Shown: piece after piece, positions 266 to 62,022 of the stretch | How positions within the stretch are numbered: the first letter of the stretch is position 1 | Layout of the letters: every line of letters begins with the position of its first letter | Assembly: GCF_018613895.1 (NCBI RefSeq) | Contig: NZ_JAGGPH010000012.1 | Coordinates: 62,001 to 126,000 of the forward strand | Source: Curtobacterium sp. ISL-83 | GTDB lineage: Bacteria; Actinomycetota; Actinomycetes; Actinomycetales; Microbacteriaceae | Length of the DNA: 64,000 nt | Reading direction: 5' to 3' | Position numbers and translations under genes: made by a program | The notes under the pieces: model-generated | The model's database searches: none | What the model was told of the DNA's origin: nothing | The model's input: the letters and a program-made list of their open reading frames with translations, nothing else

Positions 266-310
266 CTGCGTGCGTGCGTGGGCGCGTTCGTGCGTGCGTG
301 CGTGCGTGCG
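266..310. repeat. GTGC tetranucleotide microsatellite
   Basis: Two runs of the GTGC/TGCG tetranucleotide (266-280 and 288-310) are separated by GGCGCGT. This is simple-sequence DNA of the slippage-prone kind. It lies about 30 bases past the ctaA stop. Confidence 0.8.
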
Positions 311-323
311 CATGGTGCAACGA

Positions 324-510
324 ACCACCGCGTGATCGACTGGTGCTCGGTCGGAACATGCGCACGGATGCCATGCGTGCGCATGTTCCGACCGACCACC
401 CCGTGATCGACTGGGGCTCGGTCGGAACATGCGCCCGCACACCGTTCGCGCGCATCACTCGACCGACCACCGCGTGATCGACTCGTGCTCGGACGGAAGA
501 TGCACACCGA
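324..510. repeat. 71/72-base imperfect tandem repeat, about 2.6 copies
   Basis: Units beginning ACCACCGCGTGATCGACT start at 324, 395 and 467, so the period is 71 then 72 bases. All three also share a GCTCGGWCGGAASATGC segment. The first unit holds the perfect hairpin at 347-395; the later units carry decayed versions of it. Confidence 0.8.
347..395. repeat. Perfect 20-bp inverted repeat with 9-base loop
   Basis: Arm TCGGTCGGAACATGCGCACG (347-366) is exactly complementary to 376-395; the loop is GATGCCATG. There is no T-tract on either side, so a classic intrinsic terminator is doubtful. It could still end transcription of the convergent ctaA and ctaB, or be a recombination or protein-binding site. 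Confidence 0.8.
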
Positions 511-609
511 TCCGGGCGGGCGCGCCACGGCGTGGCCATCGCCAGGCGGTGCGGGTCCGCGGAGCGACGAACCCTCCGCCACAGGAACCGGTCGACGCGA
601 CGCGCCCAT

Positions 610-26856: not shown

Positions 26857-28215
26857 TCAGCGCGCGGCGGGTCCCACGTCGTCCGTCTCCCCCACCAGCG
26901 CATCATCCGGTTCCACCGGCTCGGGGCTGGGCTGCGGCAGCGGTCGCACCGCGGCCCGCTTCCGCGCACGTTCCTCGCGCTGCCCGCGGGACGCGAGCGA
27001 CGGCCGACCGGTCAGCGGGACGCTGAGCGGCGTCCAGCGGAACAGCTCCGTGGCGGCCACCGACAGCACGAGCACCAGCAGGTAGGTGACGAGGGTGAGC
27101 CAGGGCCGCGGCACGGCGGCTTCGAGCCAGCTGTCGCCGTAGAGCAGGATCCAGATCATGAACGGGTGGGCCAGGAAGATGCCGAAGGACCGGTCCGAGC
27201 CGTAGTCGATGAAGCGGGCGAGGGGGCTCCCGGGCCGTCGACGGTCGGCCCACCGTGCACCGATCGCCAGGAACCCGACGAACACGGCGGTGCTCCAGAT
27301 CACCTGCATCGGCTGCAACGCCGTGCCCGCGGCGGACAACGACAGTCCGGCGCCGACCTGCAGCGCCCACACGCCCAGGGTCAGGGCCCCGACGCCCACG
27401 AAGCCCCAGAGCACCGCGCGCCGGTGCACCCGGATGAACTGCAGGAAACTCTCGGCGTGGTCCGCGGCGATCGCACCCGACACGATGAAGAACACGTACG
27501 AGAAGAAGAACTGCTCCTGGTAGCCGTGCAACCAGGCCACCGAGTCCGGGAAGTACGCGTAGGCGGCGAACACGACCAGCTGCACCACCAGCGTGACCGC
27601 GAGCGTCGCGACGTGGTGCCCCCGGGTCCGCCGCACCAGCCAGACGATCACGGGCAGCAACAGGTACACCTGCATCGTCACGAGCAGGAAGTACAGGTGG
27701 TACCAGGACGTGCCGGTGACGATGCCCTCGGCGGCGGTGCGGACCAGGTCGGGGACGTCGCCGCGCCTGGTCGAACTGTGCAGCCAGGAAGCGACGACGT
27801 ACACGACCGACCAGGCGAGGTACGGCACCCCGACGAGCAGGAACCGTTTCGGCCAGAACTGCGCCATCGGCCGCGGGCGGAGCGTGTAGCTGTACACGAG
27901 CACGAACGCCGTGAGCGAGAAGAACACGAGGCGCGTGAAGTGCAGGAGCCCGAGCATCGCCATCTGTCCGACGTCGTCAGAGGCGGCGGTGTGGCTCGTG
28001 GTGTGCACCCCGATCACGCACGCGAACGTGAGGATCCGGAGGACGTCGACCTCGTACAGGTGCCGGGGTCGGCCGGATGCCGTCCGGGTCGGGGTCTGGG
28101 TGCCCGTCGCGACGGCTGCAGGCTCCGCGGCGGTGCCGTGCAGCGTTCCTGCCGTGGTGCCGTGCGGGGTTCCCGCGGCGGCGCCGTGCGGGGTTCCCGC
28201 GGCGGTGCCGGTCAC
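26857..28215 (-). CDS. Acyltransferase-3 family membrane protein
   Basis: A 452-residue integral membrane protein with about ten helices. After a low-complexity N-terminus, LYEVDVLRILTFACVIGVHTTSH carries the family's N-terminal R and H in its first helix. These enzymes carry acyl groups from cytoplasmic donors to sugars or lipids at the cell surface. The first ~45 residues contain an 8-residue repeat (AGTPHGAA) arising from 24-base DNA repeats. The GTG start overlaps the ligase stop as GTGA. With the ligase and the hydrolase upstream it suggests an acyl-modification pathway, but this is inference. Confidence 0.88.
   Translation of the reverse strand: MTGTAAGTPHGAAAGTPHGTTAGTLHGTAAEPAAVATGTQTPTRTASGRPRHLYEVDVLRILTFACVIGVHTTSHTAASDDVGQMAMLGLLHFTRLVFFSLTAFVLVYSYTLRPRPMAQFWPKRFLLVGVPYLAWSVVYVVASWLHSSTRRGDVPDLVRTAAEGIVTGTSWYHLYFLLVTMQVYLLLPVIVWLVRRTRGHHVATLAVTLVVQLVVFAAYAYFPDSVAWLHGYQEQFFFSYVFFIVSGAIAADHAESFLQFIRVHRRAVLWGFVGVGALTLGVWALQVGAGLSLSAAGTALQPMQVIWSTAVFVGFLAIGARWADRRRPGSPLARFIDYGSDRSFGIFLAHPFMIWILLYGDSWLEAAVPRPWLTLVTYLLVLVLSVAATELFRWTPLSVPLTGRPSLASRGQREERARKRAAVRPLPQPSPEPVEPDDALVGETDDVGPAAR
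28127..28213. repeat. 24-base tandem repeat in acyltransferase N-terminus
   Basis: Units at 28127, 28151, 28175 and a partial one at 28199 share GCGGCGGTGCCGTGC-GTTCC. The 24-base period keeps frame, giving repeated TPHG-type octapeptides. Confidence 0.85.
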
Positions 28216-29759: not shown

Positions 29760-29794
29760 AGCGTATTTCCGCTTCCTATGTGCGCTCGGAGGGG

Positions 29795-29870
29795 AACCGT
29801 CACGTTCGCTCGGCGGGAACCGTCACGCGCGGTCGGCGGGGAACCGTCACGCGCGGTCGGCGGGGAACCG
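29795..29870. repeat. 24/23-base tandem repeat spanning the hydrolase stop
   Basis: The last seven codons of the hydrolase plus its TGA (29847-29870) are followed by an exact second copy (29823-29846) and a diverged third copy (about 29800-29822). Stop triplets therefore recur at 29847, 29823 and, out of frame, 29800. Confidence 0.85.
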
Positions 29871-33285: not shown

Positions 33286-34965
33286 TCAGCCGACCAACGC
33301 GCTGCGCAGCGTGTCGAGGCCGATGCTGCCGAGCGACAGCGCCCGGTGGTGGAACGTCTTCAGGTCGAAGGACGACCCCTCGCGCGCGGCGACCTCGTCG
33401 CGGATCGACTCCCACACCCGCTGGCCGACCTTGTACGACGGAGCCTGTCCCGGCCACCCGAAGTACCGGGCGACCTCGAACTGGACGAAGGCCGGGTCCA
33501 TGTTGACGTTCTGCCCCATGAAGTCGAGGGCGTACTCCCACGTCCACGCCCCGCCGTCGGGGTTGGTCTTCTGCAGGTGCACGCCGATGTCGAGCACCAC
33601 GCGGGCGGCACGCATCCGCTGGCCGTCCAACATGCCGAGGCGATCGCCGTCGTCGTCCAGGAAGCCGAGCTGCTCCATCAGGCGCTCCGCGTACAGGGCC
33701 CAGCCCTCGACGTGCCCGGACGAGCCCGAGAGCTGCCGCCGCCAGGTGTTCAGCTCGCCGCGGTTGTAGACGCCCTGGCTGATCTGCAGGTGGTGGCCGG
33801 GGACGCCCTCGTGGTAGACCGTCGTCTTCTCGCGCCAGGTGCCGAACTCGGTCACGCCCTGGGGCACCGACCACCACATCCGGCCCGGTCGGGAGAAGTC
33901 GTCGGACGGCCCGGTGTAGTAGATGCCGCCTTCCTGGGTCGGCGCGATGCGGCACTCCAGGCGCTTGATCGGGTCGGGGATGTCGAAGTAGCGGCCGTCC
34001 ATCTCGCGGATCGACGCGTCGCTGGTCTCCTGCATCCACCGCTGCAGTGCGTCCGTGCCGTGCAGGACACGCGCCGGATCGGTGTCCAGCACCTCGATGG
34101 CGCGGGCGACGCTCGCGCCGGACTCGATGCGGTCCGCGATGCGCTCCTGCTCGTCCCGCATGCGCGCGAGTTCCTCGATCCCCCACTCGTACGTCTCGTC
34201 GAGGTCGACGGTCGCGCCGAGGAAGTGCCGGGAGTGCAGCTCGTACGCCTCGCGACCGACCGCGTCCACCGGGGTGGCGAGCGGCAGGAGCTCGTGCTCG
34301 AGGAACCGCCCGAACGACCGGTAGGCGGCAGCGGCACGCTCGGCACCGCGCGTCAGGTCGGCGCGCAGGGACTCGGGGACGTCGCGGCCGTCCTCGAACG
34401 CAGCGCCGGCCACGAGCTTCGGGAAGAACCCGTCCTCGGCGCCGTTGCGCGCGGCCTGCTCGGCGATGAGCGCGACCTGGCGCTTCGCCGGCGTCACGTG
34501 CTCGCGCGTGCCCTCGAGCAGGGTCTCGCGGATGCCCTCGAGCGCGTCCGGCAGTGCGTTGAGCCGGCTGGCGACGTCCTGCCAGTCCGACTCCGTCGCG
34601 GTCGGCATGAGGTCGAGGATCTCGCGGATCGACTGCGCCGGGCTCGCGATCACGTTGAGGTCGCGGAGGTGGAGCTTCCGGTCGTACGACTCCTGGATGA
34701 GGTCGAGCTCGGCGCCGAGGTCGGCCTTCGTCACGCGGTCGACGTCGTCCACCGTGTCCGCGGTGTCCAGGGCGTGCTTCGCAGCGCGGGCGGCGTCCGC
34801 GAGGGCCGCTGCTCCGGCGGGGGACGTGTCGCCGTACTCGCCGGTGCGCCCGGAGACGCCGATGTAGGTCGCGATCGTGGGGTCGAGGTCGACGAGGGTG
34901 GTCACCCAGTCCTCGGCGACACGGTCGACGGCGGAGGGCTGGCGGACAGGACGGTCTTCGCTCAT
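33286..34965 (-). CDS. DUF885 family protein (putative metallopeptidase-like)
   Basis: The 559-residue protein matches the DUF885 family in length and in its signature YHEGVPGHHLQI around residue 385, where the HE and HH resemble a zinc site. Other conserved pieces are YYTGPSDDFSRPG and EGWALYAERLM. No signal peptide is seen, so it is probably cytosolic. Family members are annotated as uncharacterised or peptidase-like; the true substrate is unknown. The gene stands alone, upstream of rpsA and after the repeat-filled gap. Confidence 0.85.
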   Translation of the reverse strand: MSEDRPVRQPSAVDRVAEDWVTTLVDLDPTIATYIGVSGRTGEYGDTSPAGAAALADAARAAKHALDTADTVDDVDRVTKADLGAELDLIQESYDRKLHLRDLNVIASPAQSIREILDLMPTATESDWQDVASRLNALPDALEGIRETLLEGTREHVTPAKRQVALIAEQAARNGAEDGFFPKLVAGAAFEDGRDVPESLRADLTRGAERAAAAYRSFGRFLEHELLPLATPVDAVGREAYELHSRHFLGATVDLDETYEWGIEELARMRDEQERIADRIESGASVARAIEVLDTDPARVLHGTDALQRWMQETSDASIREMDGRYFDIPDPIKRLECRIAPTQEGGIYYTGPSDDFSRPGRMWWSVPQGVTEFGTWREKTTVYHEGVPGHHLQISQGVYNRGELNTWRRQLSGSSGHVEGWALYAERLMEQLGFLDDDGDRLGMLDGQRMRAARVVLDIGVHLQKTNPDGGAWTWEYALDFMGQNVNMDPAFVQFEVARYFGWPGQAPSYKVGQRVWESIRDEVAAREGSSFDLKTFHHRALSLGSIGLDTLRSALVG

Positions 34966-35291
34966 GGTCCGACCCTACCGACCGGGTGCCGACGGGGTCT
35001 GCGGTGGGTGCGGCGGGCCAGTCGGTGGCGGGGGCGTGGTGCGCCCGGGTGGTCGGGGTGGTCCGGGTCGCCGAGACGGCGGCGTCCGCGCGAGACACCC
35101 CGGAAGCGCCGAGACGCCGCGGAATCCGGGTGCGTCTCGCGACTACCGGGGCGTCTCGCGCAGACGGTCGTGTCTCACGGGAACGGCGGCGTCTCGCCAC
35201 GACGGACGTGTCTCACGGGAACGGGCGCGTCTCGCCAGGACGGACGCGTCACGCCGAGACACGCGCACACCGCCGAGACGCCGCGGGATCC

Positions 35292-35380
35292 GGGGGCGTC
35301 TCGCGCAGACGGACGTGTCTCACGGGAACGGGGGCGTCTCGCGCAGACGGACGTGTCTCACGGGAACGGGGGCGTCTCGC
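35292..35380. repeat. 38-base tandem repeat
   Basis: GGGGGCGTCTCGC begins at 35292, 35330 and 35368. The first two copies are identical over 38 bases and contain both GCAGACGGACGTGTCTC and CACGGGAAC. Related degenerate units lie on either side (35150-35230). Confidence 0.85.
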
Positions 35381-35547
35381 CAGGACGGACGCGTCACGTC
35401 GAGACACGCGCACGCCGCCGGGACGCCGCGGGATTCGGGGGCGTCTCGCTCGAACGAGGGCGCTTCGCACGGACGGGGGCGTGTCGCCCAGCCGTGTCGC
35501 CCAGCCGGGAAGCCGTGCGGAGACGGGGGACACCGCCCGCACCCCGA

Positions 35548-35591
35548 CGGACGGGAGGCGCGGTGCCAGCTGGCACCGCGCGTCCCGTCCG
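35548..35591 (-). terminator. Terminator of polA (GGGAGGC-family palindrome)
   Basis: Two 22-base arms meet at the centre of CCAGCTGG with one mismatch; the left arm carries GACGGGAGGCGCGGTGCC. It begins 8 bases after the polA stop. Its core is almost identical to the pgl palindrome at 10745. Confidence 0.7.
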
Positions 35592-35598
35592 GTGGGCG

Positions 35599-38271
35599 TC
35601 AGTGCGCTGCGGCCTCCCAGTTGGGGCCCACGCCGACCGAGACGTCGAGCGGCACCGTGAGCTTCGCGGCGCTGCCCATCCGGGTCCGGAGGATCTCCTC
35701 GACGCGGTCCTGCTCGCCGGGCGCGACCTCGAGGATGAGCTCGTCGTGCACCTGCAGCAGCAACCGTGTGCCGAGGCCGCCCTCGCGGAGGTCCGCATCG
35801 ACACCGAGCATGGCGATCTTCATGATGTCGGCAGCGGACCCCTGGATCGGCGCGTTGAGGGCTGCGCGCTCGGCGTTCTCGCGGAGGACCCGGTTCGGGC
35901 TCTTCAGGTCGGGGAAGGGACGGCGGCGACCGAAGATCGTCTCGGTGTAGCCGTCTTCCCGTGCCTGCTCGACGACGTTGCGCAGGTAGTCGCGGACCGC
36001 GCCGAACCGGGCGAAGTACTCCGTCATGAGCGTCCGGGCCTCGGACTGCTCGATGCGCAACTGCTTGGAGAGGCCGAACGCGCTCAGCCCGTACGCGAGC
36101 CCGTACGACATCGCCTTGACCTTCGTGCGCATCTCCGGGCTGACGTCCGCGGGCTCGACGCCGAAGACGCGGGCGCCGACGAACCGGTGCAGGTCCTCGC
36201 CCGCGTTGAAGGCCTCGATCAACCCGGCGTCACCGGAGAGGTGCGCCATGATGCGCATCTCGATCTGCGAGTAGTCGGCGGTGAGGAGCGTCGTGTACGG
36301 CTCGGCCACGGCGAAGGCCGACCGGATGCGTCGACCGACCGCGGTCTTCACCGGGATGTTCTGCAGGTTCGGGTCCGTCGACGACACACGGCCGGTGCTG
36401 GTGCCGGTCTGCTCGTACCGGGTGTGGATCCGCCCGTCGACCACCGCGGCGTCGAGCGTGTCCACGATCTGGCGGAGCTTCGTCGCGTCGCGGTGCTGGA
36501 GCAGGAGCCCGAGGAACGGGTGCGGGTGCTGGTCCTGCAGGTCGGCGAGGCTGGCGGCGTCGGTGGAGAAGCCCGTCTTCGTCTTGCGGGTCTTCGGCAT
36601 CGCGAGCTCGGAGAACAGGACTTCCTGCAGCTGCTTCGGCGACCCGAGGTTCACCTCGTGCCCGATCTCGGCGAACGCCTGCTGGGCCAGTTCCGCTGCG
36701 CGCTCCCCCAGCTCGTGCGACAGGCCGGTGAGCACCGGTCGGTCGATCCCCACGCCGACGGTCTCCATGGTGGCGAGCACCGAGACGAGCGGGAGTTCGA
36801 TCTCGTCGAGCACCCGCAGCGAGGACTCGTCGACGCGGGCCCGGAGCGCGGTCGTGACCCGGAGGACGAACCAGGCGTGGACGCCCACGTTCACGGGCTC
36901 CGTCTCGGGCACGAGCTGGTTCGGGTCGGCGGTCGGCAGTTCTTCGCCGAGCTCCTGGTAGACGAGGTCCGCCAGGGGCTGCCCCTGCTTGCCCGGCTGC
37001 GCGAGCCATCCGGTGATCCGGGCGTCCCCCGCGATGCCGTTCACGGTGAAGCCGACGGTCCCGAGCGCCTTGATGGCGGCCTTCGCGTCGTGGAAGTGCT
37101 TCGGGGCATCGGAGGCGAACCAGGCCGCGAGCTGCTCGTAGTCGAGTGCTCCACTGCCGCCGGGCACCATCACGGCGTCGTCGTGGGTGGCGATCCCGAT
37201 CGCGCTGAGTCGACCGTCGATGACCTCGACCGCGACACCGAAGCCGTTCGGGGCGTCCGAGGCGTTCTTCCGCTCGAGCCAGTAGCCGAGTTCCTCGTCG
37301 ATCAGGGTCTTCACGGGCGGCGGTGTCGGAGCGCCGTCGTCGACCGAGCCGTCCACCGCGACGGCGTCGGACGGCTCGCCGGACCCGGCGATCTTGATGA
37401 CCCGGTCGAGCAGCGTGCGGAACTGGAGCTTGGCGAACAAGTCCCGGACGGCGGCTTCGTCGAGCGGGCGGAGCGCGACGTCCGCCGGGCCGACGGGCAG
37501 CTCCACGTCGGTGACCAGACGGTTGAGCCGCCGGTTGCGGATCGCCCGGTCCTTCTGCTCGCGCAGGTTGTTGCCGACGACGCCCTTGATCTCGTCGGCG
37601 TGCTCGAGGACACCGTCGAGCGAGCCGTAGGCGGTGACCCACTTCACCGCCGTCTTCTCGCCGACCTTGTCGATGCCGATCAGGTTGTCGCTGGTCTCAC
37701 CGACGAGCGCGGCGATGTCCGGGTACTGGTGCGGTTCAATGCCGTACCGCTCGTAGACCTTGTCGCGGTCGTACCGGGTGAGTTCGGAGACCCCGCGCAC
37801 CGACGGGTACAGCAGCGTGACGTCGTCGTTCACGAGCTGGATCGAGTCGCGGTCACCCGACACCACGTAGACGGTGAAGCCCTGCTCGGAGCCCTGCCGG
37901 GACAGCGTCGCGAGGATGTCGTCGGCCTCGTAGTCCTCCTTCGTGACGGTGGTGATGCCCATCGCCTCGAGCGCCTGCTGGAGGAGCGGGATCTGCCCCT
38001 TGAACTCGGCCGGGGTCTCGGATCGGGTGCCCTTGTACTCGGCGTACTCGCGCGTGCGGAAGGAGTACCGCGAGATGTCGAACGCGACCGCGAGGTGCGT
38101 CGGCTTCTCGCGCTGCAGGAGCATGAGCAGCATCGAGATGAACCCGTGGATCGCGTTCGTGTGCTGCCCGTCACGGTTCACGAAGCTGTCGACCGGCAGC
38201 GCGTAGAAGGCCCGGAAGGCGAGCGAATGGCCGTCGATGACCATGAGGGTAGGCTTTGCGGTGTCCGACAC
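35599..38271 (-). CDS. polA: DNA polymerase I
   Basis: This 890-residue enzyme fills gaps and removes primers in replication and repair. The N-terminal 5'-nuclease domain starts with DGHSLAFRAFYAL (14-26). The polymerase domain shows motif A LLTADYSQIEMRIMAHLSG, the O-helix region EMRTKVKAMSYGLAYGLS and motif C LLQVHDELILEV. The middle 3'-5' exonuclease-like domain lacks the D-x-E of active enzymes (VAVEVIDGRLSAIG stands there), so proofreading is probably absent, as in mycobacterial PolA. The start is the GTG at 38271, divergent from the thioesterase gene. Confidence 0.97.
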   Translation of the reverse strand: MSDTAKPTLMVIDGHSLAFRAFYALPVDSFVNRDGQHTNAIHGFISMLLMLLQREKPTHLAVAFDISRYSFRTREYAEYKGTRSETPAEFKGQIPLLQQALEAMGITTVTKEDYEADDILATLSRQGSEQGFTVYVVSGDRDSIQLVNDDVTLLYPSVRGVSELTRYDRDKVYERYGIEPHQYPDIAALVGETSDNLIGIDKVGEKTAVKWVTAYGSLDGVLEHADEIKGVVGNNLREQKDRAIRNRRLNRLVTDVELPVGPADVALRPLDEAAVRDLFAKLQFRTLLDRVIKIAGSGEPSDAVAVDGSVDDGAPTPPPVKTLIDEELGYWLERKNASDAPNGFGVAVEVIDGRLSAIGIATHDDAVMVPGGSGALDYEQLAAWFASDAPKHFHDAKAAIKALGTVGFTVNGIAGDARITGWLAQPGKQGQPLADLVYQELGEELPTADPNQLVPETEPVNVGVHAWFVLRVTTALRARVDESSLRVLDEIELPLVSVLATMETVGVGIDRPVLTGLSHELGERAAELAQQAFAEIGHEVNLGSPKQLQEVLFSELAMPKTRKTKTGFSTDAASLADLQDQHPHPFLGLLLQHRDATKLRQIVDTLDAAVVDGRIHTRYEQTGTSTGRVSSTDPNLQNIPVKTAVGRRIRSAFAVAEPYTTLLTADYSQIEMRIMAHLSGDAGLIEAFNAGEDLHRFVGARVFGVEPADVSPEMRTKVKAMSYGLAYGLSAFGLSKQLRIEQSEARTLMTEYFARFGAVRDYLRNVVEQAREDGYTETIFGRRRPFPDLKSPNRVLRENAERAALNAPIQGSAADIMKIAMLGVDADLREGGLGTRLLLQVHDELILEVAPGEQDRVEEILRTRMGSAAKLTVPLDVSVGVGPNWEAAAH

Positions 38272-60351: not shown

Positions 60352-62022
60352 TCAGGCGACGCGACGGAACAGCGCGATGAACATCGCGTCCGTGCCGATG
60401 CGGTGCGGCCAGAGCTGCACCGTGCTGCCGTCCGCCACCTGCGGGTCCCGAGCCGCGACGGACCGCACGACGTCGGCGGTGTCGAGCTGCTCGAGCACGC
60501 CGCCCTGCCGTGCCATGAGCGCATCCACCTGTCCCCGCGTCTCCGCGAGGTGCGGCGAGCACGTGACGTACGCCAGCGTGCCTCCCGGCGCCAGCACCCG
60601 CACCGCGGCGTCGAGGAGCTCGGCCTGCAACGCGGCCAGCTCGGGGACGTCCTCCGGTTGTTTCCGCCACCGCGCCTCCGGTCGACGCCGCAGCGCGCCG
60701 AGACCGGTGCACGGTGCGTCGAGCAGGATGCGGTCGAACGTCAGACCCAGGCCGTCCCGCCCGTACCGTCGCGCATCGCCCTCGACGACGGTGACGCCGT
60801 CACGGAAGTCCGCGAGCGCCTTCCGCACGAGTCCGGCGCGCGCGGGCGCGATTTCGTTCGCCGTGAGGGTCGCGCCACCCTGCACCGCCTCCGCCGCGAG
60901 CAGCGCGGCCTTGCCACCGGGGCCGGCGCACATGTCGAGCCAGCGCTCCCCCGCGCGGACCGCGCTGGAGCGGCTGAGGGCGAGTGCTGCCAGCTGGGAC
61001 CCCTCGTCCTGCACCCGGAGACGGCCCGCCGCGACGCCGGGGACGCGGGCGGGATCACCGGTGAGTCCGCGGATGCCGACGGGTGAGACCGGCAGGTCGT
61101 CCGCGGCCGGCGCGTGGTCGGCGATGCTGACGGGAGGCTCGGCCTGCGTCGCGTCGTCGACGTCCGTCGGCCCCGGGGCGGCCGGGACCGCCGACGCGCT
61201 CTCGTCGGTCGCGTCGGTCCCGGTCCCCTCGGCGACCGTCTCGTCGGTGCCCGTCTCGTCGGTGCCGGCCTCGTCGGTGCCAGTCTCGTCCGTGCCCGTC
61301 CCGTCCGCGCCGGCGTCGTCGGTGCCGGCTTCGTCCATGCCGGCCACGTCGGACCGGACGCGCGGGGTGGTGGCCGTGGCGATGTCGTCCTCGGTGGCGA
61401 TGCCCGGCAACGCCGCGAGCTGCACCCGCGGCGCGACGTTGTCCGCCGCGAGGAGCGCGGCGAGTTCGTCGCGCGACCGCTCCGCTGCCAGGGCGTCCCG
61501 GAGCGCGGACACGACCCACACCGGGTGGGACCACCGCGCCGCGAGGAGCGCATCGCCGGCACGACCCTCGGTGATCAGGGCGTCCCACTCGCCGTCCGTG
61601 CGGGCGGCGACCTTCCGGAGGACCGCGTTCACGAACCCGGTCGCGCGGTGGGCACCGACCTCCCGCGCGAGTTCGACGGTCGCGGCGACGGCCGCGTGCG
61701 TCGGGGTCCGCATGCCCAGCAGCTGGTGGGCACCGAGGCGCATCACGTCCAGGACGTCCGCCTCGATGTTCTCCGGCCGTCGACCGGAGGCGAGGGCGAC
61801 GATCGCGTCGTACCGTCCGAGCATCCGGATGGAGCCGTACGTGAGCTCCGTGGCGAACGCGGCGTCGCGAGCGGTCAGGCCGGCACGTCGGATGCGGGAC
61901 GGCAACAGCAGGTTCGCGTACGCGTCGTCGACCTGCACGGCACGGAGCACGTCGTACGCGACCCGCCGTGCGGTCACGGGACGGGGGCTGTTGCGTTCCC
62001 GTCGGCCGTTCGTGGGGCTCAT
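60352..62022 (-). CDS. rsmB: 16S rRNA (cytosine-5-)-methyltransferase RsmB/NOP family, with acidic insert
   Basis: RsmB methylates C967 of 16S rRNA. The 556-residue protein has an N-terminal NusB-like domain (from about 17; LTYGSIRMLGRYDAIV) and a methyltransferase domain with DMCAGPGGKAALLA, the two cysteines C438 (DAPCTGLGALRRRPE) and C488 (YVTCSPH). Between them, around residues 225-315, is an Asp/Thr/Gly-rich insert made of TGTDE-type pentapeptides, which makes the protein roughly 80-100 residues longer than usual. The ATG overlaps the fmt stop by 4 bases. Confidence 0.94.
   Translation of the reverse strand: MSPTNGRRERNSPRPVTARRVAYDVLRAVQVDDAYANLLLPSRIRRAGLTARDAAFATELTYGSIRMLGRYDAIVALASGRRPENIEADVLDVMRLGAHQLLGMRTPTHAAVAATVELAREVGAHRATGFVNAVLRKVAARTDGEWDALITEGRAGDALLAARWSHPVWVVSALRDALAAERSRDELAALLAADNVAPRVQLAALPGIATEDDIATATTPRVRSDVAGMDEAGTDDAGADGTGTDETGTDEAGTDETGTDETVAEGTGTDATDESASAVPAAPGPTDVDDATQAEPPVSIADHAPAADDLPVSPVGIRGLTGDPARVPGVAAGRLRVQDEGSQLAALALSRSSAVRAGERWLDMCAGPGGKAALLAAEAVQGGATLTANEIAPARAGLVRKALADFRDGVTVVEGDARRYGRDGLGLTFDRILLDAPCTGLGALRRRPEARWRKQPEDVPELAALQAELLDAAVRVLAPGGTLAYVTCSPHLAETRGQVDALMARQGGVLEQLDTADVVRSVAARDPQVADGSTVQLWPHRIGTDAMFIALFRRVA
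61231..61341. repeat. 15-base in-frame repeat inside rsmB
   Basis: About seven degenerate copies of GTGCCSGTCTCGTCG run in tandem. The period keeps frame and encodes the repeated GTDET/GTDEA pentapeptides of the RsmB insert. Confidence 0.85.

What the first reader, a model, noticed from the sequence alone, without database searches (positions are those of the whole stretch)
35080..35500. Nested GTCTC/GAGAC repeat array between polA and the DUF885 gene
About 420 bases are made almost wholly of CGTCTCGC, GTGTCTCACGGGAAC and CCGAGACGCCGCGG modules. A 38-base unit is repeated in tandem and a larger pattern recurs at 164 and 145 bases. The periods are not multiples of three, arguing against protein coding. 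The dense GAGAC/GTCTC sites in both orientations suggest a binding or modification site array, or an expanding satellite. It is the largest structured non-coding stretch here.
Basis: seen in the sequence. Interest (0 to 1): 0.55.

Follow-up and report, generated by a model that had tools for sequence, protein, structure and literature searches.

The report
Nineteen-base lattice repeats at gene ends
Bacteria of the genus Curtobacterium carry dozens of arrays in which a short conserved DNA word recurs exactly every 19 bases between genes, mostly where two genes end facing each other, which looks like docking sites for an unknown protein.

Summary
The repeat array is real. It spans about 35073-35490, between polA and a DUF885 gene. 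Its true unit is 19 bp: 18 GTCTC/GAGAC cores with 12 same-orientation pairs exactly 19 bp apart; 2000 shuffles gave at most 2. It is not unique but one of a family of extragenic arrays found almost only in Curtobacterium: the central 30-bp hinge is in 48 of 66 genomes of the genus, own included (0-63 sites each, control 0 of 66), while 5 of 107 family members of other genera have one two-mismatch site each. Inward-pointing half-sites CGAGACGCC step by 19 bp around a near-palindromic hinge, with random spacers. Hinges favour gaps between convergent genes (47 of 68 against 33 of 224). Between orthologous arrays, cores are 86% identical and the rest 68%. RAYT transposase, Rfam families, CGTC-REP structure and site avoidance were tested and not found. 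Best reading: binding lattices for an unidentified protein at gene ends, growing by local tandem duplication. Weak pairing covariation keeps an RNA-hairpin rival alive. A new variant of the REP/BIME kind; binding is inferred.

The parts
35073..35490 (.). 19-bp lattice array (18 exact GTCTC/GAGAC cores to 35447, degenerate lattice after that)
35073..35115 (-). left arm of hinge 1: GAGAC cores at 35073, 35092, 35111 (19-bp steps)
35110..35139 (.). hinge 1, near-palindromic pair of half-sites, GAGAC to GTCTC 23 bp start to start
35134..35233 (+). right arm of hinge 1: GTCTC cores at 35134, 35153, 35172, 35191, 35210, 35229
35256..35279 (-). left arm of hinge 2: GAGAC cores at 35256 and 35275
35274..35303 (.). 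hinge 2 (164 bp after hinge 1)
35298..35378 (+). right arm of hinge 2: GTCTC cores at 35298, 35317, 35336, 35355, 35374
35401..35405 (-). left-arm GAGAC core of hinge 3
35419..35448 (.). hinge 3, one mismatch in the left half-site (145 bp after hinge 2), with GTCTC at 35443
35599..38271 (-). polA (DNA polymerase I); its 3' end faces the array
   Evidence: DNA_pol_A, 5'-3' exonuclease domains
33286..34965 (-). DUF885 gene; its 5' end lies beyond the array
   Evidence: PF05960

Best explanation
The array is one of several dozen genus-specific protein-binding lattices in this Curtobacterium genome. The elementary site is the half-site CGAGACGCC(GC). Copies point inward to a central hinge (CGAGACGCCGCCGnATnCGGCGGCGTCTCG) and repeat outward at fixed 19-bp steps. 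I infer that an unidentified DNA-binding protein recognises the half-site, nucleates at the hinge and spreads cooperatively, one protomer or dimer per 19 bp, covering the gap between gene 3' ends and acting there as a boundary, roadblock or nucleoid/supercoil anchor. Arrays grow by tandem duplication of 19-bp units and of larger blocks of roughly 125-165 bp, and are gained and lost between species. Shown: lattice, hinge, shared core word, near restriction to the genus, 3'-end preference, core constraint, local duplication. Inferred: the protein, cooperativity and the boundary role.
For: Fixed 19/38/57/76-bp same-orientation spacing and fixed inverted registers in intergenic DNA; in a 400-kb stretch GAGAC ranks first for 19-bp pairing among pentamers with 50 or more occurrences. 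Paralogous arrays share cores and flanking letters while spacers carry almost no information, as expected for one trans-acting reader (inference). 24 ortholog pairs: core identity 466/544 (86%) against 2623/3884 (68%) elsewhere; group-bootstrap difference 12-23 points over 15 locus groups; one pair per group 295/344 against 1861/2651; 25 usable permuted-motif controls average 64%, maximum 74%; adjoining spacers 67%. Convergent gaps: 47 of 68 hinge-bearing gaps against 33 of 224 others, odds ratio 13, p=5e-17; 17 of 27 against 13 of 91 in the 30 loci of that scan not listed; 19 of 34 against 40 of 293, p=1e-7 in G000 pieces mostly picked for arrays; 4 of 10 against 28 of 202, p=0.047 in the unpicked 400 kb. 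In co-directional gaps 26 of 35 arrays lie nearer the upstream stop. Non-array hairpins are as frequent in convergent gaps with arrays (34 of 71) as without (85 of 181), so arrays do not replace terminators.
Against: No binding protein is identified. 18 of 66 genomes of the genus have no hinge and 10 more only one, so the function is dispensable. At polA-DUF885 5 of 29 species have an array. In four loci of the G015/G460/G448 trio the core advantage was smaller (312/376, 83%, against 74%), and some arrays are absent or decaying. 15 of 72 listed Curtobacterium loci have a hinge without a lattice of three or more linked cores. Convergent placement could be mere tolerance. Compensated changes in hinges exceed chance (25 against 13.0; 21 of 52 two-mismatch hinges), as a hairpin would predict. 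The window's own array is in a co-directional gap. Two array calls and one hinge fell inside called ORFs.
Confidence: 0.48

Rival explanations
1. Selfish or neutral REP-like repeat: spread earlier by an unknown transposase or copying process, tolerated mainly at gene 3' ends because promoters are avoided, and enlarged by slippage.
For: Near restriction to one genus and very variable copy number (0-63), species-level gain and loss, convergent and 3'-end placement as published for REPs (PMC3733652), local tandem duplication.
Against: Spacers of paralogous arrays are unrelated, so no recent copy-and-paste is visible. No Y1_Tnp/RAYT in any of 66 genomes. Cores are constrained between orthologs. 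The exact hinge pattern is absent from the viral collection; the plasmid search matched only the separate hairpin.
Confidence: 0.3
2. RNA element at mRNA 3' ends: hinge and arms fold in the transcript and act as bidirectional terminators or stabilisers.
For: Convergent-gap enrichment. The window array folds better than shuffles (z -3.4). In 204 hinges, Watson-Crick pairs at positions 0-10 exceed shuffles (2064 against 2039.8, sd 5.6) and compensated double changes are 25 against 13.0 (maximum of 3000 shuffles 23), mostly at pair positions 3 and 9; pair 12 alone also exceeds (146 against 136.8, p=0.011). Several pattern hits outside the genus look by eye like single terminator hairpins.
Against: In 60 hinges, 38 from G000, the unselected positions show no covariation (229 against 230.8), nor do pairs 11-14 together in the 204 (469 against 467.0). 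Arms are unequal in number and their spacers mostly do not pair (read). Array-bearing convergent gaps keep ordinary hairpins as often as others. Pairing within an array would not by itself keep the same word at all loci (inference).
Confidence: 0.18
3. Restriction or modification recognition array (GTCTC/GAGAC as an enzyme site or decoy).
For: Dense GTCTC sites in both orientations.
Against: GAGAC not avoided in genes (1.02-1.07); conservation extends to GCCGC and to 19-bp spacing, beyond a 5-bp site.
Confidence: 0.03

Closest known systems
REP/BIME elements, including GTAG REPs mobilised by RAYT (REPINs)
   Same: Short palindromic extragenic repeats, many copies, often in opposite orientations, at gene 3' ends and convergent gaps (PMC3733652 abstract, passages and section 15).
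   Different: Here the unit is a 9-11-bp half-site on a 19-bp lattice with random spacers; no Y1_Tnp found in 66 genomes of the genus.
CGTC-tagged REPs (no dedicated transposase known)
   Same: Dispersed, intergenic, apparently without a dedicated transposase (PMC3733652 abstract, passages and section 6).
   Different: Required CGTC + 8/9-bp stem starting A/T + 4/5-base loop: 0 found in 34 array regions. The paper names 5 phyla for CGTC REPs, none of them Actinobacteria.
TAACTGA intergenic heptamer repeats of Beggiatoaceae
   Same: A short fixed word repeated in many intergenic sets, proposed binding site for an unknown protein (PMC4679880 abstract and passages).
   Different: Those are direct repeats mostly just upstream of start codons; these are spaced at 19 bp, inverted about a hinge and at gene 3' ends.
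Plasmid iterons and cooperative operator arrays (recalled, no call)
   Same: Direct repeats of about 19-22 bp bound by a protein.
   Different: These are dispersed over the chromosome at gene ends; no bound protein is known.

Membership tests
RAYT-mobilised REP/REPIN | Y1_Tnp (RAYT) gene in the genome | tested here: not met
   PF01797: 0 of 66 genomes of the genus at E<=0.001; positive controls rang in 5 of 14 named genomes
RAYT-mobilised REP/REPIN | Intergenic, dispersed, multi-copy palindromic units | tested here: met
RAYT-mobilised REP/REPIN | GTAG tag beside the palindrome | tested here: inconclusive
   only raw counts: 18 GTAG/CTAC in 34 array regions, not tested beside hinges or against shuffles
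CGTC-tagged REP | CGTC (or TGTC) + 8/9-bp stem starting A/T + 4/5-base loop | tested here: not met
   0 in 34 array regions (14,349 bases); without the A/T rule 4 against 3.1 in shuffles
BIME bound by DNA gyrase/IHF/Pol I (recalled) | Protein binding demonstrated | not testable with these tools
   needs ChIP or EMSA
Rfam RNA family | Match above gathering score | tested here: not met
   9 weak matches in 34900-35700, none reaching its gathering score
Protein-binding site array | Sequence-specific constraint on the site with free spacers | tested here: met
   86% against 68%; spacers 67%
Protein-binding site array | A protein that binds the site | not testable with these tools
   no binding data
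Restriction-modification site array | Site avoided in the rest of the genome | tested here: not met
   observed/expected 1.02-1.07 in called genes of six 400-kb stretches

The most novel reading that the evidence does not exclude
A genus-specific DNA-binding protein polymerises along 19-bp lattices placed between converging genes, forming a bacterial boundary or insulator system that stops colliding transcription or anchors the nucleoid, with the lattice word co-evolving with the protein (GAAACGCC and GAGACACC hinge variants in some species).
Probability: 0.3. Interest if true: 0.8.

Novelty: new variant of a known kind. Interest (0 to 1): 0.58.

Why it matters
Abundant repeats at bacterial gene ends are known, but their purpose is rarely settled. 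Here the fixed 19-bp step, free spacers, constrained word and strong convergent-gap bias give a sharp, testable prediction (one protein, one word, one spacing), and array-free species of the same genus provide natural controls. If confirmed, it would be a bacterial system marking the ends of converging transcription units.

Tried and rejected
Coding: mechanical ORFs cross the array, but a codon-usage caller places no gene there. RAYT/REPIN: no Y1_Tnp in 66 genomes of the genus. CGTC-REP: structure not found. Rfam: nothing reaching gathering. Restriction avoidance: none. Phage or plasmid cargo: exact hinge pattern 0 in viral contigs; the plasmid search matched only the adjacent hairpin, in 3 records. 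Other genera: BLAST of the array gave one weak match each in 3 of 15 genomes of other families, against 19 of 24 in the genus; the triple-core pattern outside the genus is at control level (13 of 388 genomes against 12 with the reversed control among all 398, counted by me), but a few of those 13 (for instance G361, G366, G102) show diverged 19-bp units and could not be examined further; of 110 named pattern stretches 13 are outside Curtobacterium (8 of the 80 listed, 5 of the other 30, titles); none of the 8 is in a lattice, the 5 were not looked at singly. Empty-site mapping: intergenic DNA between available species is too diverged to place insertion ends; no arrays of four or more linked cores in 400 kb of G007 or of G437, though the whole genomes have 22 and 2 hinges. 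Lattices with another word in array-poor stretches: none comparable. A first covariation run mixed in chance matches and was replaced. A fixed analysis of the polA gap replaced one that misread strands. Literature searches listed no description of this family that I recognised; only PMC3733652 (outline, passages, sections 6 and 15) and PMC4679880 (outline, passages) were opened, not read whole. A partner gene was not searched for beyond PF01797.

Full report
OBSERVATION. The array lies between the 3' end of polA and the 5' end of a DUF885 gene, both on the minus strand. Its basic unit is 19 bp: cores fall at 35073, 35092, 35111 (GAGAC), then 35134 to 35229 (six GTCTC, 19 bp apart), 35256 and 35275 (GAGAC), 35298 to 35374 (five GTCTC), 35401 (GAGAC), 35443 (GTCTC). 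Twelve same-orientation pairs are exactly 19 bp apart, against at most 2 in 2000 shuffles. The 164- and 145-bp periods are the distances between three hinges and differ by one unit.

A FAMILY. BLAST of the array against its own genome gives 152 matches at E<=10, self included, which I count by hand as about 40 clusters in a cut list. A palindromic 30-base hinge pattern with up to 2 mismatches finds 63 sites in this genome and at least one in 48 of 66 genomes of the genus (own included); 18 have none and 10 only one; the reversed control is 0 in all 66. At 3 mismatches one of nine genomes searched had control matches (two sites, G436). A three-core pattern is in 40 of 66, control in 3. In a family sample of 110 genomes, 3 of them of the genus (one of the 3 with sites), 5 of 107 members of other genera have one two-mismatch site each, control in 2 of 110.

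ANATOMY. Over 40 own hinges the consensus is cCCGTC.cCgCGAGACGCCgC.g...c..CGAGACGCCGCCG.AT.CgGCGGCGTCTCG.cga....GCGGCGTCTCgCG..GACGGG; 16 hinges of relatives are similar. Information is near maximal in cores and near zero in spacers; the hinge cores themselves were selected as exact, so the less biased signal is in the flanking GCC letters, the outer GACGG and, partly, the cores at plus and minus 19. Half-sites obey fixed registers: same orientation 19/38/57/76; GAGACGCC to GGCGTCTC 20/39/58/77 across hinges and 8/27/46 within the lattice; GGCGTCTC to GAGACGCC 11/30/49/68. In the 400-kb C32 stretch GAGAC ranks first for 19-bp pairing among pentamers with 50 or more occurrences. A hinge can occur without a full lattice: 57 of 72 listed and 21 of 30 unlisted stretches have the hinge inside three or more linked cores (the 30 include 5 of other genera).

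LOCATION. In 400 kb, 14 arrays (four or more linked cores) were called, none inside a called gene apart from one 26-base overlap. With a three-core threshold over all sampled G000 pieces, two array calls fell inside called ORFs that may be spurious, and one hinge of the named loci did so. Array-bearing gaps in G000: 19 convergent, 13 co-directional, 2 divergent, against 40, 179 and 74 without arrays; most of these pieces were chosen because they hold arrays. In the 400 kb not so chosen: 4, 5 and 1 against 28, 127 and 47 (p=0.047). In named loci, selected for a perfect hinge: 47, 18 and 3 against 33, 137 and 54 (odds ratio 13, p=5e-17); a second pass with other gap rules gave 46, 19 and 3. In the 30 stretches not listed: 17, 9 and 1 against 13, 55 and 23. 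In co-directional gaps 26 of 35 arrays lie nearer the upstream stop codon. The window array is in a co-directional gap.

EVOLUTION. At polA-DUF885, 5 of 29 measurable species (own included) carry an array of three or more linked cores; the others have gaps of 31-896 bp without one, many with a terminator-like hairpin (one of 30 loci was cut off). Among G015, G460 and G448 some arrays are shared and others absent or decaying; no array of four or more linked cores was called in the 400-kb stretches of G007 or G437. In 24 ortholog pairs from 15 locus groups, lattice cores are 466/544 identical (86%), the rest 2623/3884 (68%), bootstrap difference 12-23 points, permuted-motif controls 64% with maximum 74% (25 usable of 60 drawn); adjoining spacers are 67%. 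Core windows were counted where at least one of the two sequences is within one mismatch of the word; the controls were chosen by the same mismatch rule, away from the hinge. Two further pairs had no aligned hinge and were dropped. An earlier set of four loci gave 83% against 74%. So the word is constrained and the spacers are not, though arrays turn over. Higher-order growth is by tandem duplication: in L300 four hinges lie 156-161 bp apart, the neighbouring hairpin repeated with them.

STRUCTURE OR SEQUENCE. Sixty hinges (38 from G000) show no pairing covariation at unselected positions (229 against 230.8 shuffled). A wider set of 204 hinges from 12 genomes does show some: compensated double changes 25 against 13.0 (maximum of 3000 shuffles 23), 21 of 52 two-mismatch hinges compensated, and an excess of pairs at positions 0-10 (2064 against 2039.8). 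It is concentrated at pair positions 3 and 9; pairs 11-14 together show none (469 against 467.0), though pair 12 alone does (146 against 136.8, p=0.011). Part of this may come from variant words (GAAACGCC, GAGACACC) used in both halves in particular species, which is my inference. The window array folds well as RNA (z -3.4), as an inverted-repeat array is expected to. Array-bearing convergent gaps keep ordinary hairpins as often as others (34 of 71 against 85 of 181); in co-directional gaps such hairpins are 12 of 36 against 129 of 700 (p=0.047), a difference that vanishes on length matching (5 of 23 against 96 of 590). I conclude that the word, more than pairing, is conserved, and that a shared trans-acting reader is the simplest reason for one word at so many loci; a contribution of pairing is not excluded.

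COMPARISON. Placement matches published REPs (PMC3733652), but RAYT was not found and CGTC-REP structure is not there. Nothing reached Rfam's gathering scores. GAGAC is not avoided in genes. The family is best filed as a new variant of dispersed extragenic repeats; membership in the RAYT REP and CGTC REP families was tested and not met.

VERDICT. Real, genus-wide though patchy, constrained and located at gene ends; the binding protein and the boundary role remain inference.

Noticed in passing
window 35543-35596: A 27-nt-arm hairpin (GGACGGGAGGC...GCCTCCCGTCC type) after polA, similar to sequences on Microbacterium and Curtobacterium plasmids and seen by eye after polA in many of the species compared; probably a common terminator of these bacteria.
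   Followed up: partly
G000 contigs C12, C30, C32 (ends): Three contigs end inside or within about 300 bases of lattice arrays, so the arrays may break short-read assembly.
   Followed up: partly
L065 and L080 (G437, G020), polA-DUF885 gap: About 18-bp tandem copies around the DUF885 -10-like TAGGGT sequence, a promoter-proximal duplication unrelated to the lattice.
   Followed up: no
G436, G452, G464 and G417 hinge lists: Variant half-sites GAAACGCC (G436, G452, G464) and GAGACACC (G417) used in both halves of some hinges, suggesting species-level drift of the word.
   Followed up: partly
L300:6602-7234: Four hinge-bearing blocks 156-161 bp apart, with a terminator-like hairpin between them, in Curtobacterium sp. 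MCBD17_032.
   Followed up: partly
G361, G366, G102 (other genera of the family): GAGAC recurs three times at 19-bp steps with diverged spacers; whether this is a related lattice or chance was not resolved.
   Followed up: no
window 303-511; 28125-28210; 29782-29870; 61206-61352: Other tandem repeats (71 bp x2.9; 24 bp x3.6; 24 bp x3.8; 15 bp x9.8) found by TRF; the second was only looked at.
   Followed up: no
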